Shown: piece after piece, positions 1 to 33,869 of the stretch
How the letters are laid out: every line of letters starts with the position of its first letter
Position numbering within the stretch: position 1 is the first letter of the stretch
DNA from: Globisporangium splendens
Taxonomy: Eukaryota > Oomycota > Peronosporomycetes > Pythiales > Pythiaceae
Direction of reading: 5' to 3'
DNA length: 64,000 nucleotides
Assembly (NCBI GenBank): GCA_006386115.1
Contig: VFIW01000018.1
Location: forward strand, 124,001 to 188,000
Made by a program: the position numbers and the translations under genes
The notes under the pieces: generated by a model
The model's database searches: none
What the model saw: the letters and a program-made list of their open reading frames with translations, nothing else
Told to the model about the DNA's origin: nothing

Positions 1-3000
1 CCATATTCACTACATAAAAAAGTCCGTCTCTGCTGCATCGCCGCTGGACTACAGGCCAATCGCACTCCTCAACTCTGATTACAAAATATTCACACGGATA
101 TTTGCAACCAGATTACGAACTGTGCTCCCTTGGCTTATCCATCACATGCAAGCTGGTTTCGTTCCAGGGCGAGCAATCCCGACTACGATCGATGTGTTAT
201 TGGCTGCACAACAGCGGGCCACGAGCGATCCATGTCCAGAGCGATCGCGTTGCTCCTTGATTTTGCTAAAGCCTATGATTCACTCGATCGCAGCTTTCTG
301 GCACAAGCGCTCCAGCATCTTGGATTCCCATTGAAGTTCGTACGCTTAGTGAAGGTGTTACACTCTCAAACCACTTACAAGTTCATTGTCAACGGTTTCC
401 TGTCGAGAAAGTACAACGTAACATCCGGAATTCGTCAAGGATGTCCGCTGGCCCCTCTTCTCTTCATCTTGGCGTTAGAGGTTCTTTATCGGAAAATCGA
501 AGCGAGTGACGAAATACACGGCGTTGAACTCCAGGCAGCAGGATGCGCAACTGAAGTCAGACTTGGAGGATACGCAGACGACACGACCATTTATCTTAGC
601 GATCCCAAGGATATCAATGCCGTGTTTGCAATCCTGGACAAATATGGAGCAGCTTCTGGGCTTCGAGTCAATCGGCACAAATCTGCAGTATTACCGCTGA
701 ACAAGGAATACAGCTCCACCGAAGAGTCAGTCAGTGACATTCATGTGCTACAACGTGAGGAACATTGCCGCTACCTCGGCATCCAAGTCGGACAAACGCC
801 TTCGAATGCAAGTAACTGGTCCAAGTGCATCCAACCTTACGTGTCAGACTTCGACTTGCGCGTCTCAAAACTCACTCTGTCGCCCAACGCGCAGCAATTG
901 CCAGTGCCGTCATCATACCCAAAGTGCTTTACGTGGCCAGGCACTCCTGGCCCTCTACGGCTATTGTCAATCAGCTACACGACCTAGTGAAACAATTTGT
1001 CTGGGGCTCAAGGAATGGTAAGCCTGCGAAACCGTGGATGAAGGAAGAACAAGCTGAACTCAAAAAAATGAATGGAGGCTTGTCGGTGCCCAACATCAGA
1101 ACGGAGCTGATGACGATGAGTGCCACAGCAGTCTCCAAATGGGCAATCACTACCTCTCACATCGATCAGGTCATCGGGGAAACCTTGCTGCACAACACAA
1201 GGGCTTCTTCGACGTACATCACGCCGCTCGATGCAATTCCAAGGCGGCCACCCCAGCTTCGTGATAACATGTGGACAACTGGCGCGGCATTATGCGCGTC
1301 GCTCCATTCTCGACCCTATGAGCCCAGAGAACGTGATAATGTACGTTGGTGTTACGAGCACTTCAAGTCGACAATTGTGCAGACTCAATGGGACGGCGAT
1401 GTGTTCCAGATCGACCTCAGCTCTAAAATGTCTGACAGGCTTCCAGGTATCATCGCTGAAGGACGAAAGCTACGTGGGACATTCTGTGCAGAATGGCTGC
1501 CATACATGACCTCGACTGCAGATGGGTGGCTTCTTGATCCCAACGGCTCCCCTTACAAGCTTGCTCACACATCATTACCAGTTGGAACAGCACAACTGGG
1601 CGACATACTTCGATGGGAGTGGATAAGACCAGGAGTGCTTAACTTCATCCCAACATGTGGAATCTTCGGATTCTCCCGGCCGTCTATTCGAGCGCTCGAG
1701 CGGTTATGTGCTACGTTGGTATCCAACTTCCCACAGCTTCTGTATCGACCACAGCAAACAAATGTGCTTCGGCTGTACAACGGGCAACGTCATTATAACC
1801 ACGAATGGCATCTGCACACCAGTGAAGCAACTCTGACCCACGTCGACACGACCCTAGTCAAAGCTACGCATACAGTTCACTCCGCAACGGACTGTGACGT
1901 CATGGCAACAAGAGACTTGAACGGGCAGAAGGTGTCGTTCCATGCACATCCACGTTTCACAAGAATCGTGCAACTATGGGGTGGCAACGGACGATACAAT
2001 ACGACCAGATCTTTCTATCGGCAACAAGTTGCAGCAACGAGGACACAAATTGGCAAAGATACTCGAGATGCAGCAGTCAACAAAGCTGTCCAAACAGCAG
2101 GATCTCTGTGGCCAGGACTGCAATTAATCCAATGGAGCGAATTACACAACATCCCAGGGATTACAGTTTATACAGCCCAGACTCTTCTCCGGCTGAAAGC
2201 CAACCGACTCTCCATGTGGAACTATGAGAAAGCTGATCTATCCTGCTCGAATCCCGAATGCTCCCAAGTTGTCCAATCTTCTGTTCAACATCTATTCTGG
2301 GAGTGTCCGAAAGCCAAACTCGTGTGGAACTACTTTTATGCGCTATGGACGAAGATCGGAATCACTCCTGGTCACGACCCCGCAATCTGGATCTTCAGTC
2401 TGGATCTACCAGATACTCCAAGGCATGCATGGACCACGATCAAGAGACACATTATCGGACACAAGTTCTCCAATGAACATCTCCAAGATCATCTCTATTC
2501 CGTCGCACACATGCTGTGGCGATATATGAGCGCGTCGCTCATACATGCCATTTGGTGTGCGCATCTGCGACGCATGGATTCGGATCCAATCGAATCGACT
2601 GCTGAGATGGCGATCATGATGACCAGATTAGAGGCAGGAATGCGAAACCTCACACGACTCGCTGAAGCTCAAGCTGGAGACTCTGACGGTCACACGGTTG
2701 CGGCAGTTCTCAAGGCATATGTCGACTGCTTTCTCAGCCAAACCGACGCCATCCCCTTGACTCCAAGTGATACTCGCGGCGTTTACCTGTTGTTTTTCGA
2801 TGGTGGATCACGCGGCAATCCAGGACCAGGAGGGACTGGATCCATTATCGTGCGTGTCCATAAGGACTCGCACACAGCCAGTTTAATTTGGGCCGCGAGC
2901 ATGGCGTATAGCAGGAAGGACACGACCAACAACTTTGCCGAGTACTGGGGTCTCATACACGGACTCCGAGAAGCCCAACGCAGTCACTTCGAACCGTTGT

Positions 3001-5658: not shown

Positions 5659-8037
5659 CTAGCCCGTGGCATCTTCCTCTGTTGTGATTCTTCGTGCGAC
5701 GTTCTTTGCCCACGAGTAATGCACTGGCAGCCGCAGTTGCGTGATACGCGTGCCGTCTCGGGTGTTCTTACTGGACGACACCACGGCATGGAATTGGCAG
5801 ATATCGTGCAATAGCAGACGATAGAAGCTGTCGCGCATCGCGAGCGTCAACGTGCTCGTCGAGACCTCCCATTTCCGAAAGAACTCACCCGAACACGGCT
5901 CGAGATCACCTTGAAACTTGGCGATGCTTGCGCGACAGGCTTCCGTTTGTCGCCGCGCAAACAGGATCACGATCTCCTCCAAGCAGAATAGAAAGCGGCG
6001 ATGCAGGAACCTCGAGAGATTCGCCGCGAGCGTGGGACCACTGCTCTCGTTTGTGGCTTTTACTTTTTGGTTCTTTTTCTTCTTCTTGTGCTTTTCCTCT
6101 CGCTCTTTGTCCTGCGCCATGCGCTTCTCGCGTTCCTGGTCTTTGGCGAGCGTCTCAAACAGATCCTCGACTTCCTCCGAGTCACACTGTCGCAGGAGAA
6201 ACGATGGGTTGCTGCTGCTGTTCGGCGTTACGGGACGTTCGCCACGGAAATGCAGCGCCGCGCACGTCGCGCTGCTCATAAACACTTTGGCTTCTCCAAC
6301 GGAGCGCATGAGCGACACCAGCGGCTCGCGTTCCGGGATACTGCGTTCTCTTCGCGTGACCAGCAGTCCGCCTGGCATGAAAGGATTCGCAACCTTCTTC
6401 TCTGGTGGCTCGTCTACTCGCTGATCAGAGCCCAGGGTTTTGGCTTGCAAGAAGAGACAGATCTCGTTCACGAGCGCGCTGCTGCGTGTCTTGGCAGCAG
6501 CGGACGTGGTCGCGAGCGCACTGTGAAACCCGACAAAGGCGCGCAGAGTATTCGCCCGCAGCCGCTCTTCGACAACGCGCTGCGCTGCTTCATCACTTTC
6601 GTTGTCGTGGCCACCAGTCGTATCGAAAAAGATCGGCTCCGAGGTCACGCCGAGCAAAATACTGCACTGCGCGAGGTTCATAACCGAGAGCACGCGCTGC
6701 CGCTGTCGCGTGAGCAACGCAGGTGTGATCTCGAGCTTGCTCCATTGCAGAGAGGACGCACGGTCCAGATGCGGCTGCGCGAGCGCGAGGCTCACGCGTT
6801 CCGCGAGCACCGTCATCCCGTAGATCTTGAACACCTCAAAGATCTCCTTCGAGAGCCGCAGCACGTGGTGCTCGCCAAGCTGCTGCATCGCACGATGTGT
6901 GTCTTGAAGCAAGGTGGAAGCAAGCCCACTAGAACCATCATTGCCGCCATTCTCTGATATAGAAGCCACGTCCACAAACGCATGGTGGCTTCCACCGCGT
7001 CCACCCTTCGCGCTCTCCTTGCATTCCTCAATGAGATCCGCAAACGATTTCTCCTGCAACTCTTGCTCGCGGCTCGGATCATGCACTGCAGCTTCAAACT
7101 CGTCCTCGAACGAGCCTTCATGGACGACCAACTCCCCGGTTTCCTCGTCGAGTTGCTCTTCCGGTAAACAGGAAAACGGGTTGAATGATACACTCAATGG
7201 ACCCGCCGTGGCTCCGACTTGACGCGCGCGCGCGCGATCGCCGAAGTGCACATAAAGCATTGTCGCGAGCAGCGCATCGAGATGGTTGCGGTACTGGGCA
7301 CACACGCGCGGGTCGTTGCTCTGGCGATCCAAGCGCACCACCAGCTCGCCCACCACGGCTTCCACGACATCCGCCTTCTCCTTCAGCTTCTTCCGAGGGT
7401 CTCGTGAAGCGGCCGCATGCGATTGTTGCTGCTGCGTCTGCCCAGCAAACACGCCGCGGCGAGGATGGCGCCGCTCGTACCCCAGTTTCTCGTACACCTG
7501 CGCTAGATTGCGGTTCGTGACGACCGCCAGCCGCAGATTGCGGAACACACGCGCCGACAGCGGTGCGTGGTGGAACTGCGAGAGCAAGCAGCGACCCACC
7601 AGCTCACCGAGCACCGCATCGCCGATCCACTCGTACACTTCCGCGAACGCGGCGTGCGAGGAGCTTCCGTGTATCGCAGTGGGCGATACGCTCGTCGACG
7701 CCAGAATCGCATGGAAGTCGTCAATGACGTCGAGAAAGCTCGCGCCGCTGAACGGATCGCTGCTCTCCGAGTACGCGCGTCGCCGTTTGCGTCTGCTGAC
7801 GCCGCCTTCTTCGTCAAACTCGTCGTCGTCGCCGTTTGCCTGTCGCCGCTTCTTGGCGCACGCCGCGGCCACTTTCTGCGCTGAGATCGTCGCCTGATGC
7901 GCCGCCGAGCGCTGCGGACGCACCTTTGGAAAATGGGATGTCGCAGATGGCGCCTTGGCGTATTTGAGCTGCTTGCTGCGCACCTTGCGGCTCCATTTCG
8001 AGCGCGTATCCGCCGTCGAAGCGCGTCCGTCGCCCAT
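5659..8037 (-). CDS. Large protein with a single RNase III-like domain
   Basis: This is an intronless ORF of 792 residues from ATG at 8037; the frame is open to 8160, but the extra 41 codons look non-coding. Residues 1-90 are basic, with a likely nuclear signal (SRRKRRR near 82-88). At about 131-145 lies FAEVYEWIGDAVLGEL, which matches the RNase III signature (E...GDAVL). Further on, EKADVVEAVVGELVVRL matches the second acidic motif (D..EA..G). The metal-binding acids thus appear to be present, so double-stranded RNA cleavage is plausible. No helicase, PAZ or obvious dsRNA-binding domain is seen. The C-terminal 400 residues include a Lys/Glu-rich stretch (KEREEKHKKKKK) and are otherwise unrecognised. 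It could be an rRNA-processing enzyme or a divergent organellar RNase III-fold protein. It is transcribed divergently from the sphingomyelinase gene. Confidence 0.75.
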   Translation of the reverse strand: MGDGRASTADTRSKWSRKVRSKQLKYAKAPSATSHFPKVRPQRSAAHQATISAQKVAAACAKKRRQANGDDDEFDEEGGVSRRKRRRAYSESSDPFSGASFLDVIDDFHAILASTSVSPTAIHGSSSHAAFAEVYEWIGDAVLGELVGRCLLSQFHHAPLSARVFRNLRLAVVTNRNLAQVYEKLGYERRHPRRGVFAGQTQQQQSHAAASRDPRKKLKEKADVVEAVVGELVVRLDRQSNDPRVCAQYRNHLDALLATMLYVHFGDRARARQVGATAGPLSVSFNPFSCLPEEQLDEETGELVVHEGSFEDEFEAAVHDPSREQELQEKSFADLIEECKESAKGGRGGSHHAFVDVASISENGGNDGSSGLASTLLQDTHRAMQQLGEHHVLRLSKEIFEVFKIYGMTVLAERVSLALAQPHLDRASSLQWSKLEITPALLTRQRQRVLSVMNLAQCSILLGVTSEPIFFDTTGGHDNESDEAAQRVVEERLRANTLRAFVGFHSALATTSAAAKTRSSALVNEICLFLQAKTLGSDQRVDEPPEKKVANPFMPGGLLVTRRERSIPEREPLVSLMRSVGEAKVFMSSATCAALHFRGERPVTPNSSSNPSFLLRQCDSEEVEDLFETLAKDQEREKRMAQDKEREEKHKKKKKNQKVKATNESSGPTLAANLSRFLHRRFLFCLEEIVILFARRQTEACRASIAKFQGDLEPCSGEFFRKWEVSTSTLTLAMRDSFYRLLLHDICQFHAVVSSSKNTRDGTRITQLRLPVHYSWAKNVARRITTEEDATG

Positions 8038-8356
8038 TTTCAATTTGAAACGTTGAGAAAAAAATGAACGCATCGTAACCCAGTCAGCTGAAGAGCATAA
8101 CCCTTGTCCTCTGAAAATAGGGGAACAGTGGAGCGGATCCGCTGCATTCCATCCAATCATCGATTTGTAACACTTTGATATCCACCAATGAAGAGCCAGT
8201 ATTTGTGGAGCTCACTTGGTGTACGATCGCAGTCCTTTCCCTTTTGTCTTTTTGTGCTGTTCTGCTTGCTCATTGCGTCATTGCGGGGAACGCCACCGCA
8301 CACACGCCAAGCAGAAGCAAACAAGACAACAAGCACAGACACCCCACACAAGCAGC
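8038..8356. promoter_or_regulatory. Short divergent intergenic region (shared promoter)
   Basis: These 319 bp separate the start codons of the RNase III gene (minus) and the sphingomyelinase gene (plus), so the promoters of both must lie here or overlap the genes. A weak initiator-like GCTCATTGCGTCATT occurs near 8267-8281 on the plus strand. It matches the oomycete initiator only in its first half. No other motif stands out. Confidence 0.4.
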
Positions 8357-18612: not shown

Positions 18613-19477
18613 CTTCTCTTCTCTGTGGGAAAGAGGGAGATCTGACGTCAACGCGGAAGAATGAAGAGTGAGCGAATGTGGGGGTGGACTTCAAAGCCAG
18701 CTGGTTCCTCCTGCCACCTCAGCACTCGTTAGTGGAGGTTAAAGCGAGACTGTGGCGCTCTTTTGAACTAACTTTGTCAGGACGAGGATTTAAGGGGGTA
18801 TGCGTTTCCAGAGGCTCTGAGTCTGAACATCAACCAATACGAGGAGGCGTGTAGGCGAAAAAAGCCAAAAAGAAAACACTCATCCGCCGCTTCCGAGCAC
18901 TCACTTTTGTGCAGAAAACGGAAGGAAGACGACGAAGGGCTTTTGGATACAAAGTGGAAAACGAATCAGATCATCATTTGACACCCAAAGCCTCTATGAA
19001 TCCATTTAGTGCCATTGGGTAATACAGGTTCTTCACCCTGTCAAAAGGGATATGCCCAACATAGTCTATTCCACACTAATACTTACATAAGGTTTACAAC
19101 CAATTATTCTCAACACTATAACATACACACGCACGCAGAGAAGATTACAGCACTTCTCGTTTTGCCACGTGCCATCACTGTTGTTCTTCTCCCATCTACA
19201 GTGCCGGCAATATATACAGGCACAGTCGATTTTTTGGATGTAATGTGTGAACGGCATCGAATGATTGGCTAAAATTTGGTAAGTTTATAGCAAATCAAAT
19301 GAGCAACCTTTCGCAAGTTTTTGCGCGCCAAAAGAAGTAGAATTCATCGAGATAGGGGCTCCAAAGACGATAACGTCATCCTGCAGAGCGGCAATAAAGA
19401 TAATGACAAACATGAAATCGAGTACATGAACGTACAAATATGCACTATAATTACGCATTTAGTAAACTATGGCATTG
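18613..19477. other. Upstream region of the ABCC gene; no other gene seen
   Basis: About 865 bp separate the ABCC start codon from the left gypsy LTR. The part next to the gene must contain its promoter, but no clear initiator motif was identified. The rest is AT-rich with only short ORFs. Confidence 0.45.
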
Positions 19478-20201: not shown

Positions 20202-21268
20202 ATGAAGCGACCAAGTGACCAAGTGAACCGTGAAGAACGTCCGTCGTCCAAGCGACAGCAGACAGCTCCAGAACTCTTCGACATCTCTCCCATTCTGAAG
20301 AAGAAGGGGGAGCTCGAGTTCTACAAGGAGCGGTTCTTCAGTTGGCGTCGGATCAATGATCGTGATGATCCGAACCAACACATCGCAGCCCAGAGAGACT
20401 CATGGCGAACATTTGTTCGTCTTGAGAACGAGAACAAGATGGAGCGTCTTCTTCGTCGTGGCAATGCTCGTGCCGAAAGAAGAACTCCCGCTGACGACAG
20501 AGCGAATCGTAGCTCTGGTCGTCGTAGTGTCGCCCCTGGCGACGCTACAAGCAGTTCTCATAGCTGCGGACCACGTCGGGGACATCAGACTCCAATTCTG
20601 ACGAGGCTCCCACGTGTCCGAGCTCGGTGGATACCCACGCCACCGAACTCTGTAGAAGCGTTGATGGTTCAACTGCTTCTTTCCTCGACGATGAGTCGGT
20701 CGATCTTCATGATCGACAATCGACTCAACCACCCAGCGATGCTCTCCCTGAGAGTCTAACAACGGGGGTGGGACTGAACGAGAAAACGATTGAGCGACTC
20801 TGGAAGTGGAAGAGTGCTCATCGTGGGCAAATCGAGGCGCTGCAGCAGCGTTGTTCGACGCTTGAGGAACGCTGCGAGAGTCTCGAGAACCATGTCGCCG
20901 ATCATGAGTCGAAGATCGACGATCTGACAGAAGGTTCTGCCCAGTGTTCGGCTTTGGAGTCCCGTTTCGAGGAACGGTTCCAACAGGTTCAGGACGAACT
21001 TGTTCGGCTCCGGAAGAACGAGAAGTCTCGTGAGTTGGCTCACGATCGCCTGCTGCGCTCTGTGGAAGAGGCAGGTTCGGCTCTCGAGGTACTTCGTGGC
21101 GAGTACCATTCTCGTCTTCAAGCGCTGGAGGCAGTGAAGGACCAATCCTTCGACGTCCTGCAACTCCTGTACGCCGAGAAGAATCTCCAGAGCGATGAGC
21201 TGTTTGCTCTTCGCAATCAAGTGGAGAAGCTTCACGATCAGCTCGATCGTTTGCGGAAGATCTCGTAG
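20202..21268 (+). pseudogene. Antisense coiled-coil gene of element 1, broken by one base deletion
   Basis: This is the copy of the antisense gene described at 32078-33145, here on the plus strand, opposite pol. The start MKRPSDQ lies 76 bp inside the LTR edge. The first frame runs from 20202 to about 20596. Comparison with element 2 shows one base missing at 20596/20597 (CCAATTCTG against CCAATGTCTG), after which the gene continues in the frame of 20627-21268 to the TAG. The second half is a clear coiled coil (LQQRCSTLEERCESLENH, EERFQQVQDELVRLRKN). The same deletion also shifts the pol frame on the other strand, so one mutation damaged both genes. Apart from this the two copies differ at only a few residues. 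Confidence 0.7.
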
Positions 21269-24200
21269 GATCCGCAGATCCACTTGGAAGGTAAGGCTTT
21301 AGTCTACCCACATAAAATGTCGGGTGTAGACGCATGCGTGTAGGTATGTCTAGCGTGTAGGCATCGCCATTGCATTTCACTACCTTGAACGGTCCGATGA
21401 ACCTTGGCAGAAGCTTGGAGCTTCCCAAGTTGGACACTGCATGTTCAGGCAGGTTCGCCGTGCTAAGTAATACAAGATCATTGATCCTATATACTTGCTT
21501 GTTCTTCCTTCCGCTCTTGTCTGCTTGTTCCTTTTGCAGATCCTGAGCCTTCGCGATTGCGTCTCGAACAAACCTCACAACGGCTTGTCTCCTCACAACA
21601 AAGTCATCGACTTGCTGCTCTTCACGACTTGTTAGGCCGTCGAGGGGTTTCATCGAGTCAAAATTGGCTTTCAACTCGGAAGCAGCATTCAGGTCGTAAG
21701 ACGACTTCAGCTTGTTTCCGTGAGCCGGAGTCCCTCCCCCACTTAAGGTAGAGACCTCACCCATTATGGAAGCAGGCACTCGGGGATGAATGCCATAGTT
21801 CACATAAAATGGAGAGTGACCTGTCGAGACATGCGTGGAGTTGTTCAACGCAAGCTCGGCAAGAGGGAGAAACTCACTCCACTCTTTGAAAGACGTTGCG
21901 TAGCTGCGCAACACGTCTTCGAGGACACGATTCACTCGTTCTGTTTGACCGTCCGTTTCAGGGTGTGCCGCTGTTGACATGGACAACTTGGTGTCCAGAA
22001 GTCCGAACAGTGCACGCCAGAACTTGGACGTGAAACGGGTGTCACGGTCAGACACGATCTCGACTGGTAGTCCGTGTAGACGGAATATGACGTCTACAAA
22101 GACCTTGGCAGTCTTCTCAGCAGAGATCTTGTCCGAAACAGGCGCAAGATGCACCATCTTACTGAATCGGTCCACAAACACCAGGATACCATTCCTGCCA
22201 TGTTTGTCCCTTGGAAGCCCGAATATGAAATCCATACTCACAGACTTCCAACTGTCCGACGGGACATGTAATGAACGAAGTGGAGCCTGAGTAGAGCCAG
22301 AGGGCTTCACTCGTTGGCACACTTCGCAAGTACGCACATACTTGCGAACCCACTTGTACATGTGAGGCCAGTAGTAATCTCGAGACAAGTTGAGAAACGT
22401 TTTCTCACGTCCGAGATGGCCACTCGAAGGACCGTCATGGTACTCGTACAAGAGTCGATGACGCAGACCTTCGTCGTTGGGGACAACGATCCTCGCTGGA
22501 TCCCCTTCGTCAACCGCATAATACAACAGCTCATTGTGCATGCTGTAACGGTGAACACGCGATCTTGCTCTTGATGGGAGGTTTTGGAGTGCCTTATCTG
22601 AGGGATTCTTGAAATACTTGATCGGTTCTTGACATGCTTCGTCTTGCTTGTAGCCCTCAGTGATTTCTTCTTGGATTGTGCTTGCCACTCCCGCAGCAAT
22701 CGCGTTGACGTCTTCACAGAGTCGGCACGCTCCGTTCGTGTCGTCACTCTTGTTCTTCGGATCATAGTCCGGACGTCTTGACAAAGCGTCAGCAAGTATG
22801 TTGGACTTGCCGGGCTTGTAGTGTACAACAAAGTTATACTCAGCAAAGAAGGAAAACCATCTTGCCATTCTTTGCGATAGGTGAGGCGTCTTTACAGCTG
22901 TCCGCAGTGATGCGTGATCAGTGTAAATAGCGAACTGCTCCTCACCAAGCAAATAGACTCGGAACTTTGCCAATGCATACTTCATGGCCAAAAGTTCTTT
23001 GCCATGAACCGGATAGTTCCTTTCTGCGGACCTGAGTTGTCGTGATTGATACGACACAACTCTTTCTTTGCCCTCATCATCGTGTTGCATCAGTGCACAC
23101 CCGATGGCACAATCGCTCGCATCGCAGACTACATGGAACGGCTTCTCATGATCTGCGAGAGCTAGGACAGGAGCTTCTCTTAAGCTCTTCTTCGCTTCAG
23201 CAAACGCTGCCTGATGTTCCTCAGACCACTCCCACTCATTGTCCTTTTTCACGAGACTCGTGAGAGGTTGCACTAATGCTGCGTGATTGCGTGTGTATTT
23301 GTGCAGGTAGTTCGCCAAACCCAACCACTGGCGTAGTTGTTTGACATTCTGAGGAATAGGCCAATCGTCAATAGCCTTGACTTTCTCAGGATCAGCTCGA
23401 ACGCCATTCTTGCCAACAAAGCAACCGAGTACAGGGATCTCAGGGGCGAAGAAGATGCATTTCTTCAAGTTAGCGTATAATTTGTTTTCACGCATAACCT
23501 GAAAAACTTGACGGAGATGTTCAAGATGAACATCAACATCCTTCTCCTTTCCCAAAGCCTTACTGTGGACGAAGATATCGTCCAAGTAGCTCGGTGCAAA
23601 CTCTCTCAATGGACGAAGTACATTCGTGACCATTCTGTTGAAAGTTGCTGGTGCGTTCTTCAGACCTTGTGGCATCACCATCCACTCCCACAGCATACCA
23701 CTAGGGGTGCTTACTGCTGTAAATGGTACATCGCTCTCACGCATACGAATCTGATAGAATCCATCCTTCAGATCGATCGCACTAAAGACAGTGCTGCCAA
23801 CCATTCCATCAAGGATCACATCCTTACGTGGAACTGGGGTCTGAGCAGGTATGGTCGCATCATTCAATTTGTTGAATGCATGAACAATACGCCAACCACC
23901 TGTGGCCTTCTTAACACAGAAGGCAAGACTACAGTGCGGAGACTTGCTCTCGCGCACATGGCCAGCCTTCTGTCGCTGCGCGAAGAACTCATCGATTGCA
24001 TCGACTTGTTCCTTCGGTAGCGGCCATTGCCTTGTGATACAGTACTTCGTTCCCGGAAGTACATCTATCTCGTGACGAATGCCTCTGTCTTGCGGCAATT
24101 CGTCAGGCACTTTGTCTGGGAATATGTCCGCATATTCCTTGACAAGTCCATACACGGGGTTTGTCTTTAGAGCGTCCCACGACTGCTCATCAAACCTCTC

Positions 24201-26389: not shown

Positions 26390-26417
26390 TGTAAGAGGCT
26401 ATCCAAGACAGCCTCAA
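26390..26417 (-). repeat. 28-bp remnant of the element 1 5' LTR
   Basis: The plus strand starts TGTAAGAGG, the inverse of an LTR 3' end, then diverges (CTATCCAAGACAGCCTCAA against GGTGCTGTTAACAACAGTC in the left LTR). The central LTR follows directly. Most of the 5' LTR of element 1 has been lost or replaced. Confidence 0.6.
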
Positions 26418-27066
26418 TGTAATGGGCTATAACCAGCCATTACATGAAGGTGGATCTGTTACCAGATCTAGTGTGTCACACACCACCTTCAGCGTGCATT
26501 GTGGAGACACAAATAACAAAGGGATTACGGTAATACAGTCCCCACATGCACGTGTGACGTCATTCGATGACGTCACGAGTGTTCTCTGTGCTGATCAGTG
26601 CAGAATGTTGTTCTCATGTACTAATCAGTACAGAGCGATACATCCATGTACTAATCAAGTACTGAGTGATGGTTCCTGCTTGGGAAACTGGACTGGCGAC
26701 GAGACCGACGTGTCTCTGCCACCTGGAGTGAGTGGCGCGAGCCAATCACTTTGCAGGTGTTTTATACAAGACTTGAAGTTCAAGCTTCTAGAAGATCCCG
26801 TAGGTTCAACCTCAGTGTACCCAAGGTTTTATATATCAGATTCATAGGTTTTATTGTGTATGTTTAGGTTTTAGTTATAAAACGTGTAGGATCCCTTGGG
26901 GTTCATCAGTAAGTAGCGACAGGAACCATAACCATTTTTAATTCAGTTGCAAATTTTCCTCCAAGTACTCAAGTCTTCTTCCTCCCTCCAAGTCGGGAGA
27001 TCGCTTCCTCTGGCACAAGCGTGTGTGCCGTGTTTGAGGGACTGTTGTGAACAGCGCCCTCTTACA
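26418..27066 (+). repeat. Ty3/gypsy LTR, central (5' LTR of element 2)
   Basis: This 649-bp LTR reads TGTAATGGGC...CTCTTACA on the plus strand. It contains the CRE-like palindrome at 26554-26576, the GTACTAATCAGTAC-type palindromes (26615-26665) and a TTTTATATATC box near 26826. It differs from the right LTR at about ten sites by eye, so element 2 is not a very recent insertion or its LTRs have been partly converted. Confidence 0.95.
26554..26576. promoter_or_regulatory. Paired CRE-like sites (TGACGTCA) in the central LTR
   Basis: Two TGACGTCA octamers are arranged around TTCGA as a near-perfect palindrome. It lies about 260 bp upstream of the TATA-like box at 26826, a plausible enhancer position for the sense transcript of element 2. 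Confidence 0.6.
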
Positions 27067-28140: not shown

Positions 28141-31100
28141 GAAGAGTGTCAGTCAAACGTCAAGTTTGATCGTTCACAAAGTTTATGTAGACGGTATTGC
28201 AACGCCTCTACGAGCTTTGGTTGACACTGGTGCGTCGAACAACTTTGTTCGAAATGAAGTGATCGTCAGGCATGGTGTCTTCGTGCCTGATGCGAATGAA
28301 GAGAAGACAATGATTGTCCGGTTGGCAAATGGGTCAACTGTGAAGATGCCGAAGCGCGTGGTGCGCTTGGCAATCAAGTGTGAAGATTTCCGAGGTGAAG
28401 ACGAGTTTATTTTACTCGACCTCGATGACAAGTTTGACATCATCCTGGGAATGCCGTGGTTGAAGCGTTACCAACCTAGCATTGACTGGATGAATATGAA
28501 GATCTCCGTTGGCAAGTCACGAGATGTTGACTTGTGCTGCACAACAACGGATGAAGTGGTGTGGGTGTACACATCTGTGGAAGAGATCCCAGATGGCCCT
28601 TGTGATATTGCGGTGTGCGATGGCCCCCATGTTCACAAGTGGTACCCATTTTGAAGACGACAAACGGAGGTGGAGCAGTCAGGCGCCAGAAAAAGACTGT
28701 CTCCTTTGCCATCGACGACGAGAAGGTTCGCGATGGCGTTGACAAGAGTGAATGGAAGAGGAACAGACACCCTTCCCAACAAGACAAGAAGAAGACCAGC
28801 AAGAGAAGTTTTTCGCCAAGAGTTTTGAGTACCCCTGATCAAGGTACAAGTGGTGATGACGAAGGGAGTGTCCAAGCACAAGACACTCCAAGCGAGTTTG
28901 TGAATATCGCGGTCTACAATGAGGAAGGTGGCGTGGATGTAATCCGTCACGTGAAGATTGAAAATCCTCCAAGTTCAGTCGAAGAGTTGATTTCCTTGCC
29001 ATTGATGAGCAAGAAGACACTGGAGCGCAGCCTAGCGAGAGGCGATATTGCGCAGGTGTGTGTGATCGTCGAAATGGTCGACGAAGGCTTCGTCAACACA
29101 GCATCGAGTGCGGATGCAGATGTGTTGGACGAAAAGACACGGAAGGAAAGGTTCGAGGAGCAGTCGTGGGACGCCCTCAAGAAGAACCCCGTGTATGCGC
29201 TTGCCAGGGAATTTGAAGACATTTTCCCTGACAAGGTGCCGGACGAATTGCCGTTCGATAGAGGCATTCGTCATGAGATTGACGTGCTTCCTGGCACGAA
29301 GTACTGCATCACAAGACAGTGGCCGTTGCCAAAGGAACAAGTCGAGGCAATCGACGAGTTCTTTGCACAACGTGCTAAGGCTGGTCATGTGCGAGAGAGC
29401 AAGTCTCCGCATTGCAGCCCCACTTTCTGTGTGAAGAAGGCAACTGGAGGTTGGCGCATTGTTCACGCTTTCAACAAGCTGAACGACGCGACAATTCCGG
29501 CCCAGACTCCGGTTCCACGCAAGGACATGATCCTTGATGGAATGGTTGGCAGCACCGTCTTTAGTGCTATCGATCTGAAAGATGGGTTCTATCAGATTCG
29601 AATGCGCGAAGACGATGTCCCACTAACCGCAGTGAGCACCCCGAGTGGTATGCTGTGGGAATGGTTAGTGATGCCACAGGGACTGAAGAATGCTCCTGCG
29701 ACCTTCAATCGAATGGTCACGAACGTTCCTCGTCCTCTGCGAACATTTGCACCAAGTTACTTTGACGACATTTTCGTTCACAGTAAGACCACGAATGGGA
29801 AGTCTGATGTCGATGTTCATCTCGATCATCTTCGTCAAGTTTTCCAGGTCATGCGTGAGAACAAACTCTACGCAAACTTGAAGAAGTGCATGTTCTTCTC
29901 CCCCGAGATCCCTGTTCTCGGTTGTTTTGTGGGCAAGAGCGGTGTTCGAGTCGATCCGGAGAAGGTCAAAGCTATTGACGATTGGCCAGTGCCAAAGAAT
30001 GTCAAACAGCTGCGACAATGGTTGGGTCTAGCCAACTACTTGCACAAGTACACGCGCAATTATGCAGCGTTGGTGCAACCCCTCACACAGCTCTTGAAGA
30101 AAGACGTTGAGTGGGAGTGGTCTGAGGAACATCAGACGGCGTTCGAAGAAGTCAAGAGGAGTCTTCGAGAAGCTCCTGTGTTGGCTCTGCCAAACCACGA
30201 CAAGCCGTTCCACGTCGTCTGCGATGCGAGCGACTATGCCATCGGTTGCGCCTTAATGCAACACGATGATGAGGGTCACGAGCGAGTTGTGTCGTATCAG
30301 TCACGACAACTCCGACCCGCAGAACGGAACTACCCAGTTCACGACAAGGAACTTCTGGCGATGAAGTATTCTTTGGTCAAGTTCCGTGTGTATCTGCTTG
30401 GCGAGGAGCGCTTTGCCATCTACACTGATCGCGCATCTCTGCGTACGGCAGTAAAGACTCCTCATTTGTCGCAAAGAATGGCAAGATGGTTTTCCTTCTT
30501 TGCTGAGTATAATTTTGTTGTACACTACAAGCCCGGCAAGTCCAACATACTTGCTGACGCTTTGTCAAGACGTCCGGACTATGATCCGAAGAACAAGAGT
30601 GACGACACGAACGGAGCGTGCCGACTCTGTGAAGACGTCAACGCGATTGCTGCGGGAGTGGCAAGCACAATCCAAGAAGAAATCACTGAGGGCTACAAGC
30701 AAGACGAAGCATGTCAAGAACCGATCAAGTATTTCAAGAATCCCTCAGATAAGGCACTCCAAAACCTCCCATCAAGAGCAAGATCGCGTGTTCACCGTTA
30801 CAGCATGCACAATGAGCTGTTGTATTATGCGGTTGACGAAGGGGATCCAGCGAGGATCGTTGTCCCCAACGACGAAGGTCTGCGTCATCGACTCTTGTAC
30901 GAGTACCATGACGGTCCTTCGAGTGGCCATCTCGGACGTGAGAAAACGTTTCTCAACTTGTCTCGAGATTACTACTGGCCTCACATGTACAAGTGGGTTC
31001 GCAAGTATGTGCGTACTTGCGAAGTGTGCCAACGAGTGAAGCCCTCTGGCTCTACTCAGGCTCCACTTCGTTCATTACATGTCCCGTCGGACAGTTGGAA

Positions 31101-32802
31101 GTCTGTGAGTATGGATTTCATATTCGGGCTTCCAAGGGACAAACATGGCAGGAATGGTATCCTGGTGTTTGTGGACCGATTCAGTAAGATGGTGCATCTT
31201 GCGCCTGTTTCGGACAAGATCTCTGCTGAGAAGACTGCCAAGGTCTTTGTAGACGTCATATTCCGTCTACACGGACTACCAGTCGAGATCGTGTCTGACC
31301 GTGACACCCGTTTCACGTCCAAGTTCTGGCGTGCACTATTCGGACTTCTGGACACCAAGTTGTCCATGTCAACAGCGGCACACCCTGAAACGGACGGTCA
31401 AACAGAACGAGTGAATCGTGTCCTCGAAGACGTGTTGCGCAGCTACGCAACGTCTTTCAAAGAGTGGAGTGAGTTTCTCCCTCTTGCCGAGTTTGCGTTG
31501 AACAACTCCACGCATGTCTCGACAGGTCACTCTCCATTTTATGTGAACTATGGCATTCACCCTCGAGTGCCTGCTTCCGTAATGGGTGAGGTCTCTACCT
31601 TAAGTGGGGGAGGGACTCCGGCTCATGGTAACAAGCCGAAGTCGTCTTACGACCTGAATGCTGCTTCCGAGTTGAAAGCCAATTTTGACTCGATGAAACC
31701 CCTCGACGGCCTAACAAGTCGTGAAGAGCAGCAAGTCGATGACTTTGTTGTGAGGAGACAAGCCGTTGTGAGGTTTGTTCGAGACGCAATCGCGAAGGCT
31801 CAGGATCTGCAAAAGGAACAAGCAGACAAGAGCGGAAGGAAGAACAAGCAAGTGTATAAGATCAATGATCTTGTATTACTTAGCACGGCGAACCTGCCTG
31901 AACATGCAGTGTCCAACTTGGGAAGCTCCAAGCTTCTGCCAAGGTTCATCGGACCGTTCAAGGTAGTGAAATGCAATGGCGATGCCTACACGCTAGACAT
32001 ACCTACACGCATGCGTCTACACCCGACATTTTATGTGGGTAGACTAAAGCCTTACCTTCCAAGTGGATCTGCGGATCCTACGAGATCTCCCGCAAACGAT
32101 CGAGCTGATCGTGAAGCTTCTCCACTTGATTGCGAAGAGCAAACAGCTCATCGCTCTGGAGATTCTTCTCGGCGTACAGGAGTTGCAGGACGTCGAAGGA
32201 TTGGTCCTTCACTGCCTCCAACGCTTGAAGACGAGAATGGTACTCACCACGAAGTACCTCGAGAGCCGAACCTGCCTCTTCCACAGAGCGCAAAAGGCGA
32301 TCGTGAGCCAACTCACGAGACTTCTCGTTCTTCCGGAGTCGAACAAGTTCGTCCTGAACCTGTTGGAACCGTTCCTCGAAACGGGACTCCAAAGCCGAAC
32401 ACTGGGCAGAACCTTCTGTCAGATCGTCGATCTTCGACTCATGATCGGCGACAAGGTTCTCGAGACTCTCGCAGCGTTCCTCAAGCGTCGAACAACGCTG
32501 CTGCAAAGCCTCGATTTGCCCACGATGAGCACTCTTCCACTTCCAGAGTCGCTCAATCGTTTTCTCGTTCAGCCCCACCCCCGTTGTTAGACTCTCAGGG
32601 AGAGCATCGCTGGGTGGTTGAGTCGATTGTTGATCATGAAGATCGACCGACTCATCGTCGAGGAAAGAAGCAGTTGAACCATCAACGCTTCTACAGAGTT
32701 CGGTGGCGTGGATATCCACCGAGCTCGGACACGTGGGAACCTCGTCAGACATTGGAGTCTGATGTTCCCGACGTGGTCCGCAGCTATGAGAACTGCTTGT
32801 AG
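28030..32802 (+). pseudogene. Element 2 Pol, one frameshift between protease and RT, otherwise open
   Basis: The protease is read in the frame of 27761-28654 (LRALVDTGASNNFVR, about 28210-28255). The polyprotein continues from about 28640 in another frame to the TAG at 32800-32802, so a shift lies near 28620-28660. RT has SYFDDIFVHS, so the catalytic box is YFDD where element 1 has YLDD. RNase H has VVCDASDYAIGCALM. The integrase HHCC and D-D-E motifs match element 1, and the chromodomain RFYRVRWRGYPPSSDTWEP is followed by the proper C-terminus (LESDVPDVVRSYENCL). Between integrase and chromodomain lies a linker of about 170 residues, rich in Ser, Arg and Pro, which is the strand opposite the antisense gene. 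Confidence 0.9.
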
Positions 32803-33145
32803 CGTCGCCAGGGGCGACACTACGACGACCAGAGCTACGATTCGCTCTGTCGTCAGCGGGAGTTCTTCTTTCGGCACGAGCATTGCCACGACGAAGAAGA
32901 CGCTCCATCTTGTTCTCGTTCTCAAGACGAACAAATGTTCGCCATGAGTCTCTCTGGGCTGCGATGTGTTGGTTCGGATCATCGCGATCGTTGATCCGAC
33001 GCCAACTGAAGAACCGCTCCTTGTAGAACTCGAGATCCCCCTTCTTCTTCAGAATGGGAGAGATGTCGAAGAGTTCTGGAGCTGTCTGCTGTCGCTTGGA
33101 CGACGGACGTTCTTCTCGGTTCACTTGGTCACTTGGTCGCTTCAT
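32078..33145 (-). CDS. Antisense gene of the gypsy element: basic N-terminus plus long coiled coil
   Basis: ATG at 33145 gives 355 residues ending ...QLDRLREIS; an in-frame ATG inside the LTR (33244) would add 33. The start lies 76 bp from the 3' LTR, and 725 bp overlap pol in the opposite direction. The N-terminus has a bipartite basic stretch (KRPSDQ...RPSSKRQQ), a possible nuclear signal, followed by a basic helical part (KERFFSWRR, KMERLLRRGNARAERR). Residues from about 225 on are heptad-patterned (LQQRCSTLEERCESLENL, ESRFEERFQQVQDELVRL). No known family was recognised. Between the two copies most substitutions in the linker overlap are silent in this frame and not in pol. Transcription would have to come from antisense activity of the LTR (inferred). 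Antisense ORFs are known in some plant gypsy elements, and HTLV-1 has the antisense HBZ gene. Confidence 0.7.
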   Translation of the reverse strand: MKRPSDQVNREERPSSKRQQTAPELFDISPILKKKGDLEFYKERFFSWRRINDRDDPNQHIAAQRDSWRTFVRLENENKMERLLRRGNARAERRTPADDRANRSSGRRSVAPGDATSSSHSCGPRREHQTPMSDEVPTCPSSVDIHATELCRSVDGSTASFLDDESVDLHDQQSTQPPSDALPESLTTGVGLNEKTIERLWKWKSAHRGQIEALQQRCSTLEERCESLENLVADHESKIDDLTEGSAQCSALESRFEERFQQVQDELVRLRKNEKSRELAHDRLLRSVEEAGSALEVLRGEYHSRLQALEAVKDQSFDVLQLLYAEKNLQSDELFALRNQVEKLHDQLDRLREIS

Positions 33146-33208
33146 TGCCAATTGCAAAGTGAACTGCTCCGAAAGGTCTGCAAAAGTACGCAAGGTACTT
33201 GTGACTTT

Positions 33209-33217
33209 AAGGAGGGG
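33209..33217 (+). other. Polypurine tract of element 2
   Basis: AAGGAGGGG lies 4 bp before the 3' LTR, the normal place for plus-strand priming. Element 1 has the same tract on the minus strand at about 20130-20138. Confidence 0.7.
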
Positions 33218-33221
33218 ATGA

Positions 33222-33869
33222 TGTAATGGGCTATAACCAGCCATTACATGAAGGTGGATCTGTCCAGATCTAGTGTGTCACACACCACCTTCAGCGTGCA
33301 TTGTGGAGACACAAATAACAAAGGGATTACGGTAATACAGTCCCCACATGCACGTGTGACGTCATTCGATGACGTCACGAGTGTTCTCTGTGCTGATCAG
33401 TGCAGAATGTTGTTCTCATGTACTAATCAGTACAGAGCGATAACATCCATGTACTAATCAAGTACTGAGTGATGGTTCCTGCTTGGGAAACTGGACTGGT
33501 GATGAGACCGACGTGTCTCTGCCACCTGGAGTGAGTGGCGCGAGCCAATCACTTTGCAGGGATTTTATACAAGACTTGAAGTTCAAGCTTCTAGAAGATC
33601 CCGTAGGTTCAACCTCAGTGTACCCAAGGTTTTATATATCAGATTCATAGGTTTTATTGTGTATGTTTAGGTTTTAGTTATAAAACGTGTAGGATCCCTT
33701 GGGGTTCATTTGTAAGTAGCGACAGGAACCATAACCTTTTCAATTCAGTTGCAAATTTTCCTCCAAGTACTCAAGTCTTCGTTCCTCCCTCCAAGTCGGG
33801 AGATCGCTTCCTCTGGCACAAGCGTGTGTGCCGTGTTTGAGGGACTGTTGTTAACAGCGCCCTCTTACA
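33222..33869 (+). repeat. Ty3/gypsy LTR, right (3' LTR of element 2)
   Basis: This 648-bp LTR reads TGTAATGGGC...CTCTTACA. It carries the CRE-like palindrome at 33356-33378. In places (for example CCTTTTCAATTCAG and GTTGTTAACAGC) it agrees with the left LTR of element 1 against the central LTR of its own element, consistent with the shared 3' tract of the two elements. Confidence 0.95.
33356..33378. promoter_or_regulatory. Paired CRE-like sites (TGACGTCA) in the right LTR
   Basis: This is the same palindrome as in the other LTRs. It lies about 210 bp upstream of the antisense start codon at 33145, so it could serve an antisense promoter. That role is inferred. Confidence 0.55.

What the first reader, a model, noticed from the sequence alone, without database searches (positions are those of the whole stretch)
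32078..33145. A long antisense coiled-coil gene built into a Ty3/gypsy element
Opposite to pol, from 76 bp inside the 3' LTR, both gypsy copies carry an ORF for a protein with a basic N-terminus and about 130 residues of regular heptads (355 codons in element 2; 20202-21268 in element 1). It overlaps 725 bp of pol, including the chromodomain. This makes the element ambisense. Antisense ORFs are known from some plant gypsy elements and antisense HBZ from HTLV-1, but I know of no described case with this coiled-coil product overlapping the chromodomain in oomycetes. Its function could be nuclear (basic stretch KRPSDQ...SKRQQ), for example regulating LTR transcription or integration.
Basis: partly seen in the sequence, partly recalled or inferred. 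Interest (0 to 1): 0.88.

Follow-up and report, generated by a model that had tools for sequence, protein, structure and literature searches.

The report
Hidden antisense gene inside gypsy retrotransposons
In a water-mould plant pathogen, a family of jumping genes carries a second protein gene on the DNA strand opposite its main gene, kept by selection across many copies, and its product is predicted to be a long coiled rod that likely works in the nucleus on the element's own DNA or RNA production.

Summary
The antisense ORF at 32078-33145 (-) in this Globisporangium splendens Ty3/gypsy element is a real gene, not a mirror of pol. Across 60 fetched copies plus the window's own, substitutions peak at the antisense third codon position where pol is absent and opposite pol's integrase-chromodomain linker (dN/dS 0.32 and 0.29 in ten inter-clade pairs). 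Opposite the chromodomain the pattern flips: pol is constrained (0.31), the antisense frame is not (1.53). The two genes take turns, each folded part facing the other's linker. A match to the oomycete INR+FPR core promoter starts 17 nt before the ATG in 57 of 61 copies. Metagenomic pol and antisense proteins from separate contigs fit as complementary strands (best pair 235 of 235 positions). A sister gypsy family in this genome has a likely homologous antisense gene with the same alternation; a third has an open antisense ORF in the same place. The predicted protein has a three-helix head, a disordered middle and a 171-residue heptad helix. Antisense accessory ORFs are known in plants and Botrytis; overlap with the chromodomain, alternating constraint and the oomycete host are new here. 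No transcript, localisation or function was shown.

The parts
32078..33145 (-). antisense gene, 355 codons (P0001)
   Evidence: open frame; purifying selection in its own frame outside pol and opposite the pol linker
32867..33034 (-). predicted three-helix head of the antisense protein (residues 38-93)
   Evidence: AlphaFold2, ten-residue mean pLDDT 82-91 over residues 31-90 in the full-length model and 77-90 alone; residues D56, P57, S67, W68 invariant in 26 sequences
32597..32866 (-). predicted disordered middle of the antisense protein (residues 94-183), opposite the end of pol and the chromodomain
   Evidence: pLDDT under 50; here the sense wobble position varies most
32084..32596 (-). predicted single long helix / coiled coil (residues 184-354), opposite the pol linker
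   Evidence: ten-residue mean pLDDT 94-98 over residues 201-350; period-3.5 hydrophobicity peak; indels of exactly 7 residues only here
33150..33162 (-). oomycete INR+FPR core-promoter match (TCACTTTGCAATT), putative antisense transcription start
   Evidence: motif definitions from PMC3599244 passages
33209..33217 (+). polypurine tract AAGGAGGGG of the sense element
   Evidence: read
33222..33869 (+). 3' LTR of element 2
   Evidence: 98.0% identical to the 5' LTR
26418..27066 (+). 5' LTR of element 2
28615..32802 (+). pol ORF (RT, RNase H, integrase, SH3_Tf2-1, chromodomain)
   Evidence: Pfam
31867..32055 (+). SH3_Tf2-1 domain of integrase; the antisense gene ends just after it
32056..32610 (+). 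pol linker between SH3_Tf2-1 and chromodomain, poorly constrained in the pol frame
   Evidence: sense codon-position divergence 0.178/0.354/0.145; sense dN/dS 1.65
32611..32790 (+). pol chromodomain, constrained in the pol frame
   Evidence: Pfam E 2.7e-11; sense dN/dS 0.31 opposite antisense residues 117-194
20202..21268 (+). counterpart of the antisense gene in element 1, frameshifted in both genes

Best explanation
This Ty3/gypsy family carries on the strand opposite pol a protein gene kept by purifying selection, whose product is predicted to be an oligomer with a helical head and a long coiled coil and likely acts in the nucleus as an accessory factor on the element's own DNA or transcription. 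Shown by calls: the antisense frame is under purifying selection where pol is absent and opposite pol's linker, while pol is under selection in the chromodomain, so the two frames alternate in constraint. Inferred: transcription starts at the conserved internal INR+FPR match (about 33160) just upstream of the ATG and runs leftwards, giving a short-leader mRNA for a 355-residue protein. Inferred: the basic N-terminus gives nuclear entry, the head binds DNA, chromatin or a transcription factor, and the coiled coil joins two or more heads. Inferred: the protein tunes LTR transcription or helps the integration complex, and loss lowers a copy's spread, which is why the frame is kept. Confidence by step: real protein-coding antisense gene about 0.95; own promoter at that site about 0.75; oligomeric coiled coil about 0.85; nuclear accessory role about 0.5; regulator rather than integration helper about 0.3.
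For: Codon-position divergence at antisense positions 1/2/3, most diverged pairs of 61 sequences: no pol opposite 0.316/0.298/0.490, opposite chromodomain 0.162/0.241/0.107, opposite linker 0.233/0.187/0.377; the same position peaks in all five divergence bins, and the switch shows in sliding windows. Pooled dN/dS over ten chosen inter-clade pairs, 60 bootstraps: antisense 0.32 (0.26-0.41) outside pol, 1.53 (0.82-3.33) opposite the chromodomain, 0.29 (0.22-0.37) opposite the linker; sense 0.31 (0.17-0.46) in the chromodomain part, 1.65 (1.32-2.18) in the linker. Control, 28 pairs of nine representatives: the pol frame is wobble-peaked in integrase (0.068/0.032/0.235) and SH3 (0.011/0.028/0.198) and second-position-peaked only in the linker. 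INR+FPR-like motif at -17 in 57 of 61 copies, kept between clades whose flanks differ. Complement threading: P0077 on P0098 235/235, P0052 on P0095 235/237; coil alone scores 65-163 on 13 family pols and at most 14 on the 107 other listed pols. AlphaFold2: three helices 38-93 and helix 184-354. Sister family: head 0.093/0.072/0.174 with p 3e-7, opposite chromodomain 0.060/0.177/0.059, opposite linker 0.060/0.090/0.137.
Confidence: 0.55

Rival explanations
1. The antisense ORF is a by-product: pol codon choice leaves the opposite frame open and no protein is made.
For: Recoding only the chromodomain part while keeping the pol protein leaves the antisense frame open by chance in 19-45% of trials, and long antisense open runs (137 and 196 codons) occur elsewhere opposite pol.
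Against: The first third of the ORF has no pol opposite it and still has dN/dS 0.32. Opposite the linker the antisense frame, not pol, is conserved. Homologues are found down to 43% protein identity among metagenomic proteins (43-82%).
Confidence: 0.03
2. What matters is the antisense RNA (dsRNA or small-RNA control of the element), and the protein is secondary.
For: Antisense transcripts from retrotransposons can silence by dsRNA; the review PMC7264820 says both roles may hold together (passage). A promoter-like motif is conserved.
Against: An RNA role does not predict third-position-peaked change, a flip of phase opposite the chromodomain, or 7-residue indels confined to the coil.
Confidence: 0.07
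3. The protein is a structural partner of the particle or integration complex (for example it bridges integrase-chromodomain and nuclear import) and not a transcription regulator.
For: Constraint is shared with the chromodomain region of pol and an antisense ORF sits there in three families. By inference, a helper of its own integration would be kept by selection on each copy, whereas a pure self-repressor would tend to be lost.
Against: It would be translated from a separate antisense mRNA that is not the packaged RNA. No interaction data exist.
Confidence: 0.3
4. A host gene captured by the element, or a host domesticated copy.
For: About 286 member sequences in 65 G. splendens clusters are annotated as ordinary proteins (counted by hand); I did not check the genomic context of these protein hits.
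Against: All 60 fetched main-family copies have pol opposite in the same phase. No head match reached a curated cut-off: the only Pfam row in the head region is a sub-threshold PF09124 match in P0071 (E 0.021), and the PDB rows and the NCBIfam rows shown for P0001 lie in the middle or coil.
Confidence: 0.05

Closest known systems
Antisense additional ORFs (aORF-3R) of plant Ty3/gypsy elements: Grande gene23, RIRE2, Retand (PMC7264820, PMC11963269; passages read)
   Same: Antisense gene between pol and the 3' LTR, kept in most copies; in Grande transcribed from a promoter upstream of the gene and the protein is nuclear; 11 Retand antisense ORFs are annotated Smc, as the coil here also weakly matches SMC models.
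   Different: Those lie in long pol-LTR regions (2,933-6,566 bp in Retand). Here only 419 bp separate pol from the LTR, and two thirds of the gene overlaps pol and its chromodomain. No PF04195 (TRP28) match at E<=10 in four proteins. Host is an oomycete.
Boty brtn of Botrytis cinerea (Zhao 2011, seen only as cited in PMC7264820 and PMC8365987 passages)
   Same: Antisense extra gene in a gypsy element of a filamentous plant pathogen.
   Different: Described as lying between pol and the 3' LTR; no overlap with pol is mentioned in the passages read. Sequence was not compared here.
HBZ of HTLV-1 (mostly recalled; mentioned in PMC11963269 and PMC7264820 passages)
   Same: Antisense gene near the 3' LTR with a basic part and a heptad-repeat part; nuclear.
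   Different: No bZIP domain match in P0001, head and coil are about 90 residues apart, and the predicted promoter is internal, not in the LTR.
Functionally segregated overlapping genes such as HIV-1 tat/rev (recalled, not looked up)
   Same: Two overlapping proteins divide the shared DNA so that only one is constrained at a time.
   Different: Here the genes are antisense, the partner is pol's linker and chromodomain, and the host element is a retrotransposon.
Oomycete Chronos gypsy elements with chromodomain and archaeal-type RNase H (PMC5348765; passages read)
   Same: Oomycete Ty3/gypsy with a captured chromodomain.
   Different: No archaeal-type RNase H match in this pol. The word antisense does not occur in that paper (0 occurrences).

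Membership tests
aORF-3R (antisense accessory ORF of LTR retrotransposons) | antisense to gag-pol, at the 3' end of the internal region | tested here: met
   32078-33145 (-), 76 bp from the 3' LTR; partly overlaps pol, unlike the described ones
aORF-3R (antisense accessory ORF of LTR retrotransposons) | present in most copies with conservation like other element proteins | tested here: met
   89 of 114 scored copies without internal stop, scored from 482 candidates; dN/dS 0.29-0.32 in the parts it does not share with a constrained pol
aORF-3R (antisense accessory ORF of LTR retrotransposons) | transcribed in antisense from its own promoter | tested here: inconclusive
   INR+FPR-like motif at -17 in 57 of 61 copies; no RNA data
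aORF-3R (antisense accessory ORF of LTR retrotransposons) | nuclear protein (shown for Grande) | not testable with these tools
   basic N-terminus only
Retand / TRP28 antisense proteins | PF04195 domain | tested here: not met
   no PF04195 in the rows shown by hmmscan to E<=10 for P0001, P0052, P0071, P0079 (25 best rows shown, filters drop most weak matches)
Retand / TRP28 antisense proteins | long pol-3'LTR region (2.9-6.6 kb) | tested here: not met
   419 bp between the pol stop and the LTR
HBZ-like antisense bZIP | bZIP domain (basic region joined to a leucine zipper) | tested here: not met
   no bZIP row for P0001; only E 0.13 in the coil of P0079; head and coil separated by about 90 disordered residues
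HBZ-like antisense bZIP | antisense promoter in the 3' LTR | tested here: inconclusive
   conserved motif lies internal to the LTR; no transcript mapped
Chronos oomycete elements | archaeal-type additional RNase H in pol | tested here: not met
   only RT_RNaseH and RT_RNaseH_2 found in pol
Chromodomain-bearing Ty3/gypsy | chromodomain C-terminal to integrase | tested here: met
   PF00385 at residues 1333-1392
Chromodomain-bearing Ty3/gypsy | RT phylogeny within chromoviruses | not tested
   no tree was built
Segregated overlapping gene pair | constraint alternates between frames along the overlap | tested here: met
   in the main family; same direction in the sister family, where only the head part is significant

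The most novel reading that the evidence does not exclude
Oomycete chromodomain gypsy elements have an ancient third gene woven into pol on the opposite strand: the two proteins split the shared DNA domain by domain, each folded part facing the other's linker, and the antisense product is a nuclear oligomer by which the element controls its own transcription or integration. The gene predates the split of at least three element families in this genome, so the long integrase-chromodomain linker of these pols exists because it is the back side of another gene.
Probability: 0.4. Interest if true: 0.88.

Novelty: new variant of a known kind. Interest (0 to 1): 0.78.

Why it matters
It shows by selection analysis, not by an open frame alone, that an LTR retrotransposon can carry a protein gene antisense to pol itself with alternating constraint. 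It gives the old question of what antisense retrotransposon ORFs do a tractable protein: a small head plus a regular coiled coil, with a defined promoter candidate. It also offers an explanation for a long, poorly conserved linker in these integrases. In practice, the public G. splendens annotation lists these antisense genes as ordinary hypothetical proteins (about 286 member sequences in 65 clusters, counted by hand), which inflates the gene catalogue.

Full report
Setting. The window lies on a 644,465-bp contig of a 53.3-Mb genome. The antisense protein matches proteins of Globisporangium splendens, one of them on a contig of that length, and the published assembly has the same size (PMC7163027, whole text read). 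Element 2 has LTRs at 26418-27066 and 33222-33869, 98.0% identical, and a pol ORF 28615-32802 with RT, RNase H, integrase, SH3_Tf2-1 (31867-32055) and a chromodomain (32611-32790). Element 1 lies head to head on the minus strand.

Observation. 32078-33145 (-) is open for 355 codons. It begins 76 bp internal to the 3' LTR, covers 343 bp with no pol opposite, then runs under the chromodomain and the whole linker, and stops 22 bp after the SH3 domain ends. In element 1 the frame is split and pol is shifted too. In the own genome 114 of 482 candidates were scored; 89 of those 114 have no internal stop (counted by hand). Searching with the first 114 residues scored 150 of 385, and searching with a diverged relative gave 117 matches, so the family is large and these are lower bounds. 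Open length alone proves little: opposite the rest of pol the same antisense phase has runs up to 137 codons and another phase 196, with 34 stops against 58.6 after recoding.

Sampling. I fetched 60 copies, picked by hand to span 60-99% protein identity and all listed without an internal stop, so the sample is biased to open antisense frames. In all 60 the antisense frame and the C-terminal pol frame have the same relative phase: antisense position 1 faces sense position 1, antisense 2 faces sense 3, and antisense 3 faces sense 2. This phase makes a clean test, because each frame's free position is a costly one for the other. One search used these 60 and the window's element 2 (61 sequences); the column test used 60 (L068, start missing, left out).

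Selection. Divergence at antisense positions 1/2/3 for pairs more than 25% apart is 0.316/0.298/0.490 where pol is absent, 0.162/0.241/0.107 opposite the chromodomain and 0.233/0.187/0.377 opposite the linker. The same position peaks in all five divergence bins, down to pairs under 3% apart (0.021/0.015/0.037, 0.010/0.029/0.015, 0.012/0.017/0.031). Sliding windows switch near 32800 and again near 32560; one window in between (residues 145-164) peaks at the third position and the first transition window (97-116) at the first. Columns with a second allele in at least two copies depart from uniform in each part (p 0.009, 0.009, 6e-7). Pooled dN/dS over ten chosen inter-clade pairs is, for the antisense frame, 0.32 (0.26-0.41), 1.53 (0.82-3.33) and 0.29 (0.22-0.37), and for the sense frame 0.31 (0.17-0.46) in the chromodomain part and 1.65 (1.32-2.18) in the linker. 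As a control, the pol frame is wobble-peaked in integrase and SH3 and flips to the second position only in the linker, where pol amino-acid identity falls to 0.55 against 0.81-0.96 in the neighbouring parts (28 pairs of nine representatives, eleven copies left out). These are pairwise counts on related and recombining copies, so the intervals are indicative.

Distribution. A search of 5.8 billion proteins gave 82 hits, 65 of them G. splendens clusters and 17 metagenomic at 43-82% identity; a profile search gave 86. Gene callers tend not to report two long genes that overlap on opposite strands (general knowledge), so I tested whether antisense proteins fit on the back of pol proteins found separately (120 of 134 hits were listed). 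For a given pair of neighbouring pol residues about 3 antisense residues are possible. P0077 fits P0098 at 235 of 235 positions and P0052 fits P0095 at 235 of 237. Scores with whole antisense proteins split cleanly: twelve listed pols and the window's own at 65-239, the rest at 29 or less, shuffles up to 16; P0090 joined the first group when its whole length was used. With the coil alone these 13 listed pols score 65-163 and the other 107 at most 14. The 13 were defined by the earlier threading and P0090's linker, so this is a consistency check rather than a blind test. In the nine family pols where both ends could be placed the linker is 172 residues; in the others it ranges from 35 to 206.

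A sister family. Pols P0152 and P0175 from the same genome have linkers of 82-84 residues and no main-family coil. Their loci (the best 20 of 62 matches, L069-L088) nevertheless carry a long antisense ORF in the same phase that also stops next to SH3. All 20 loci align to it, 5 of them in two frames; 11 of 20 have no stop in the aligned pieces and 7 of 20 are open over the full length in one frame. Its head shows 0.093/0.072/0.174 (p 3e-7), the part opposite the chromodomain 0.060/0.177/0.059 (p 0.065) and the part opposite the linker 0.060/0.090/0.137 (p 0.19): the same alternation, with significance only for the head. Its N-terminal extension shows no coding signal. A third family, one locus (L089), has a 357-codon antisense ORF in the same place, opposite a pol that is itself interrupted by a stop; its head is 33% identical to the sister's over 146 columns. 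The main family's head resembles both only weakly (HH probability 34-52%), sharing an FY...F block and a W..F block. I take homology as likely, not shown.

Start and promoter. The sampled clades share TCACTTT, two bases, then (A/G)AT(T/C) just before ATGAAGCG, with a few exceptions, while the sequence between it and the polypurine tract differs between clades. The P. infestans core-promoter study defines INR as YCAYTYY and FPR as MWTTTNC, nearly always 2 nt apart, most often within 50-100 nt of the start codon, and detected INR+FPR in Pythium ultimum (PMC3599244, passages). Here the INR is exact, the spacing is 2 nt and the FPR has one mismatch (two in some clades); the site is closer to the ATG than usual. 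The pattern starts at -17 in 57 of 61 copies (59 fetched, two in the window) and an INR is present in 59 of 61. In the window the pattern I wrote after seeing the site occurs 6 times against 0.87 expected, a number reached in none of 100 shuffles; one of the six is 47 nt upstream of the first ATG of an ABC-transporter ORF. Six of 114 matches begin at residue 2; in L019 the ATG is out of frame.

Protein. AlphaFold2 on 26 sequences gives helices 38-51, 61-76 and 80-93 (ten-residue mean pLDDT 82-91 over residues 31-90), a disordered stretch 94-183 and one helix 184-354 (94-98 over residues 201-350); the head alone gives the same helices. Hydrophobicity peaks at period 3.5 in the coil, 0.257 here and 0.177-0.318 in five relatives. 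Of 12 distinct indels listed in the coil 5 are exactly 7 residues, and of 35 elsewhere none is, although three of those are larger multiples of 7 and some come from gene models (counted by hand).

How it likely works. The anatomy suggests a separate antisense mRNA, a basic N-terminus, a small head and a long oligomerising rod, as in nuclear accessory proteins of other retroelements. Grande gene23 is nuclear and transcribed in antisense from a promoter upstream of the gene (PMC7264820, passages). I prefer a nuclear accessory role on the element's own DNA or transcription, with an integration-helper role as the main rival. Nothing here tests either.

Known or new. Antisense accessory ORFs between pol and LTR are known in plants and in Boty of Botrytis (passages). 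My searches listed no report of such a gene in oomycetes or of one overlapping pol: antisense ORF with gypsy and LTR retrotransposon (8 of 8 listed), oomycete with retrotransposon, antisense, gypsy, chromodomain (12 of 80 listed), overlapping genes with antisense, retrotransposon, coiled-coil and integrase (1 of 1), extra open reading frames (7 of 7), overlapping gene under purifying selection (7 of 7), Phytophthora with antisense ORF (1 of 1). For these I saw listings only, apart from the papers named here, and most subscription journals are not held. I therefore call it a new variant of a known kind.

Noticed in passing
L069-L088 (sister gypsy family), e.g. L088: A second chromodomain gypsy family in this genome carries its own long antisense ORF with the same direction of alternating constraint and a short leucine-zipper-like tail.
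   Followed up: partly
L089:692-1762 (-): A third, single-locus gypsy family with a 357-codon antisense ORF in the same position, head 33% identical to the sister family's.
   Followed up: partly
L064 versus window 32078-33145: L064 has a nearly identical coil (dS 0.05) but a very different head (dS 1.2), which suggests that head and coil have been exchanged between element lineages by recombination.
   Followed up: no
G. splendens public annotation: About 286 member sequences in 65 clusters of antisense element genes are annotated mostly as hypothetical proteins.
   Followed up: no
window 26390-26418: Elements 1 and 2 lie head to head; next to the junction only a few bases of an element-1 LTR end are seen, so its 5' LTR looks missing, and element 2 shows no matching target-site duplication at its two ends.
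   Followed up: partly
window 18659-18671 (-): An INR+FPR match 47 nt upstream of the first ATG of an ABC-transporter ORF, an independent example of this promoter in the window.
   Followed up: partly
window 21807-21819 (-) and 31527-31539 (+): The same promoter-like pattern lies in the integrase coding part of both elements, in sense orientation in each; it may be chance or an internal start.
   Followed up: no
window 5662-8160 (-): An 833-codon ORF with a Ribonuclease_3 domain (E 3.5e-9), a possible RNA-silencing gene of the host.
   Followed up: no
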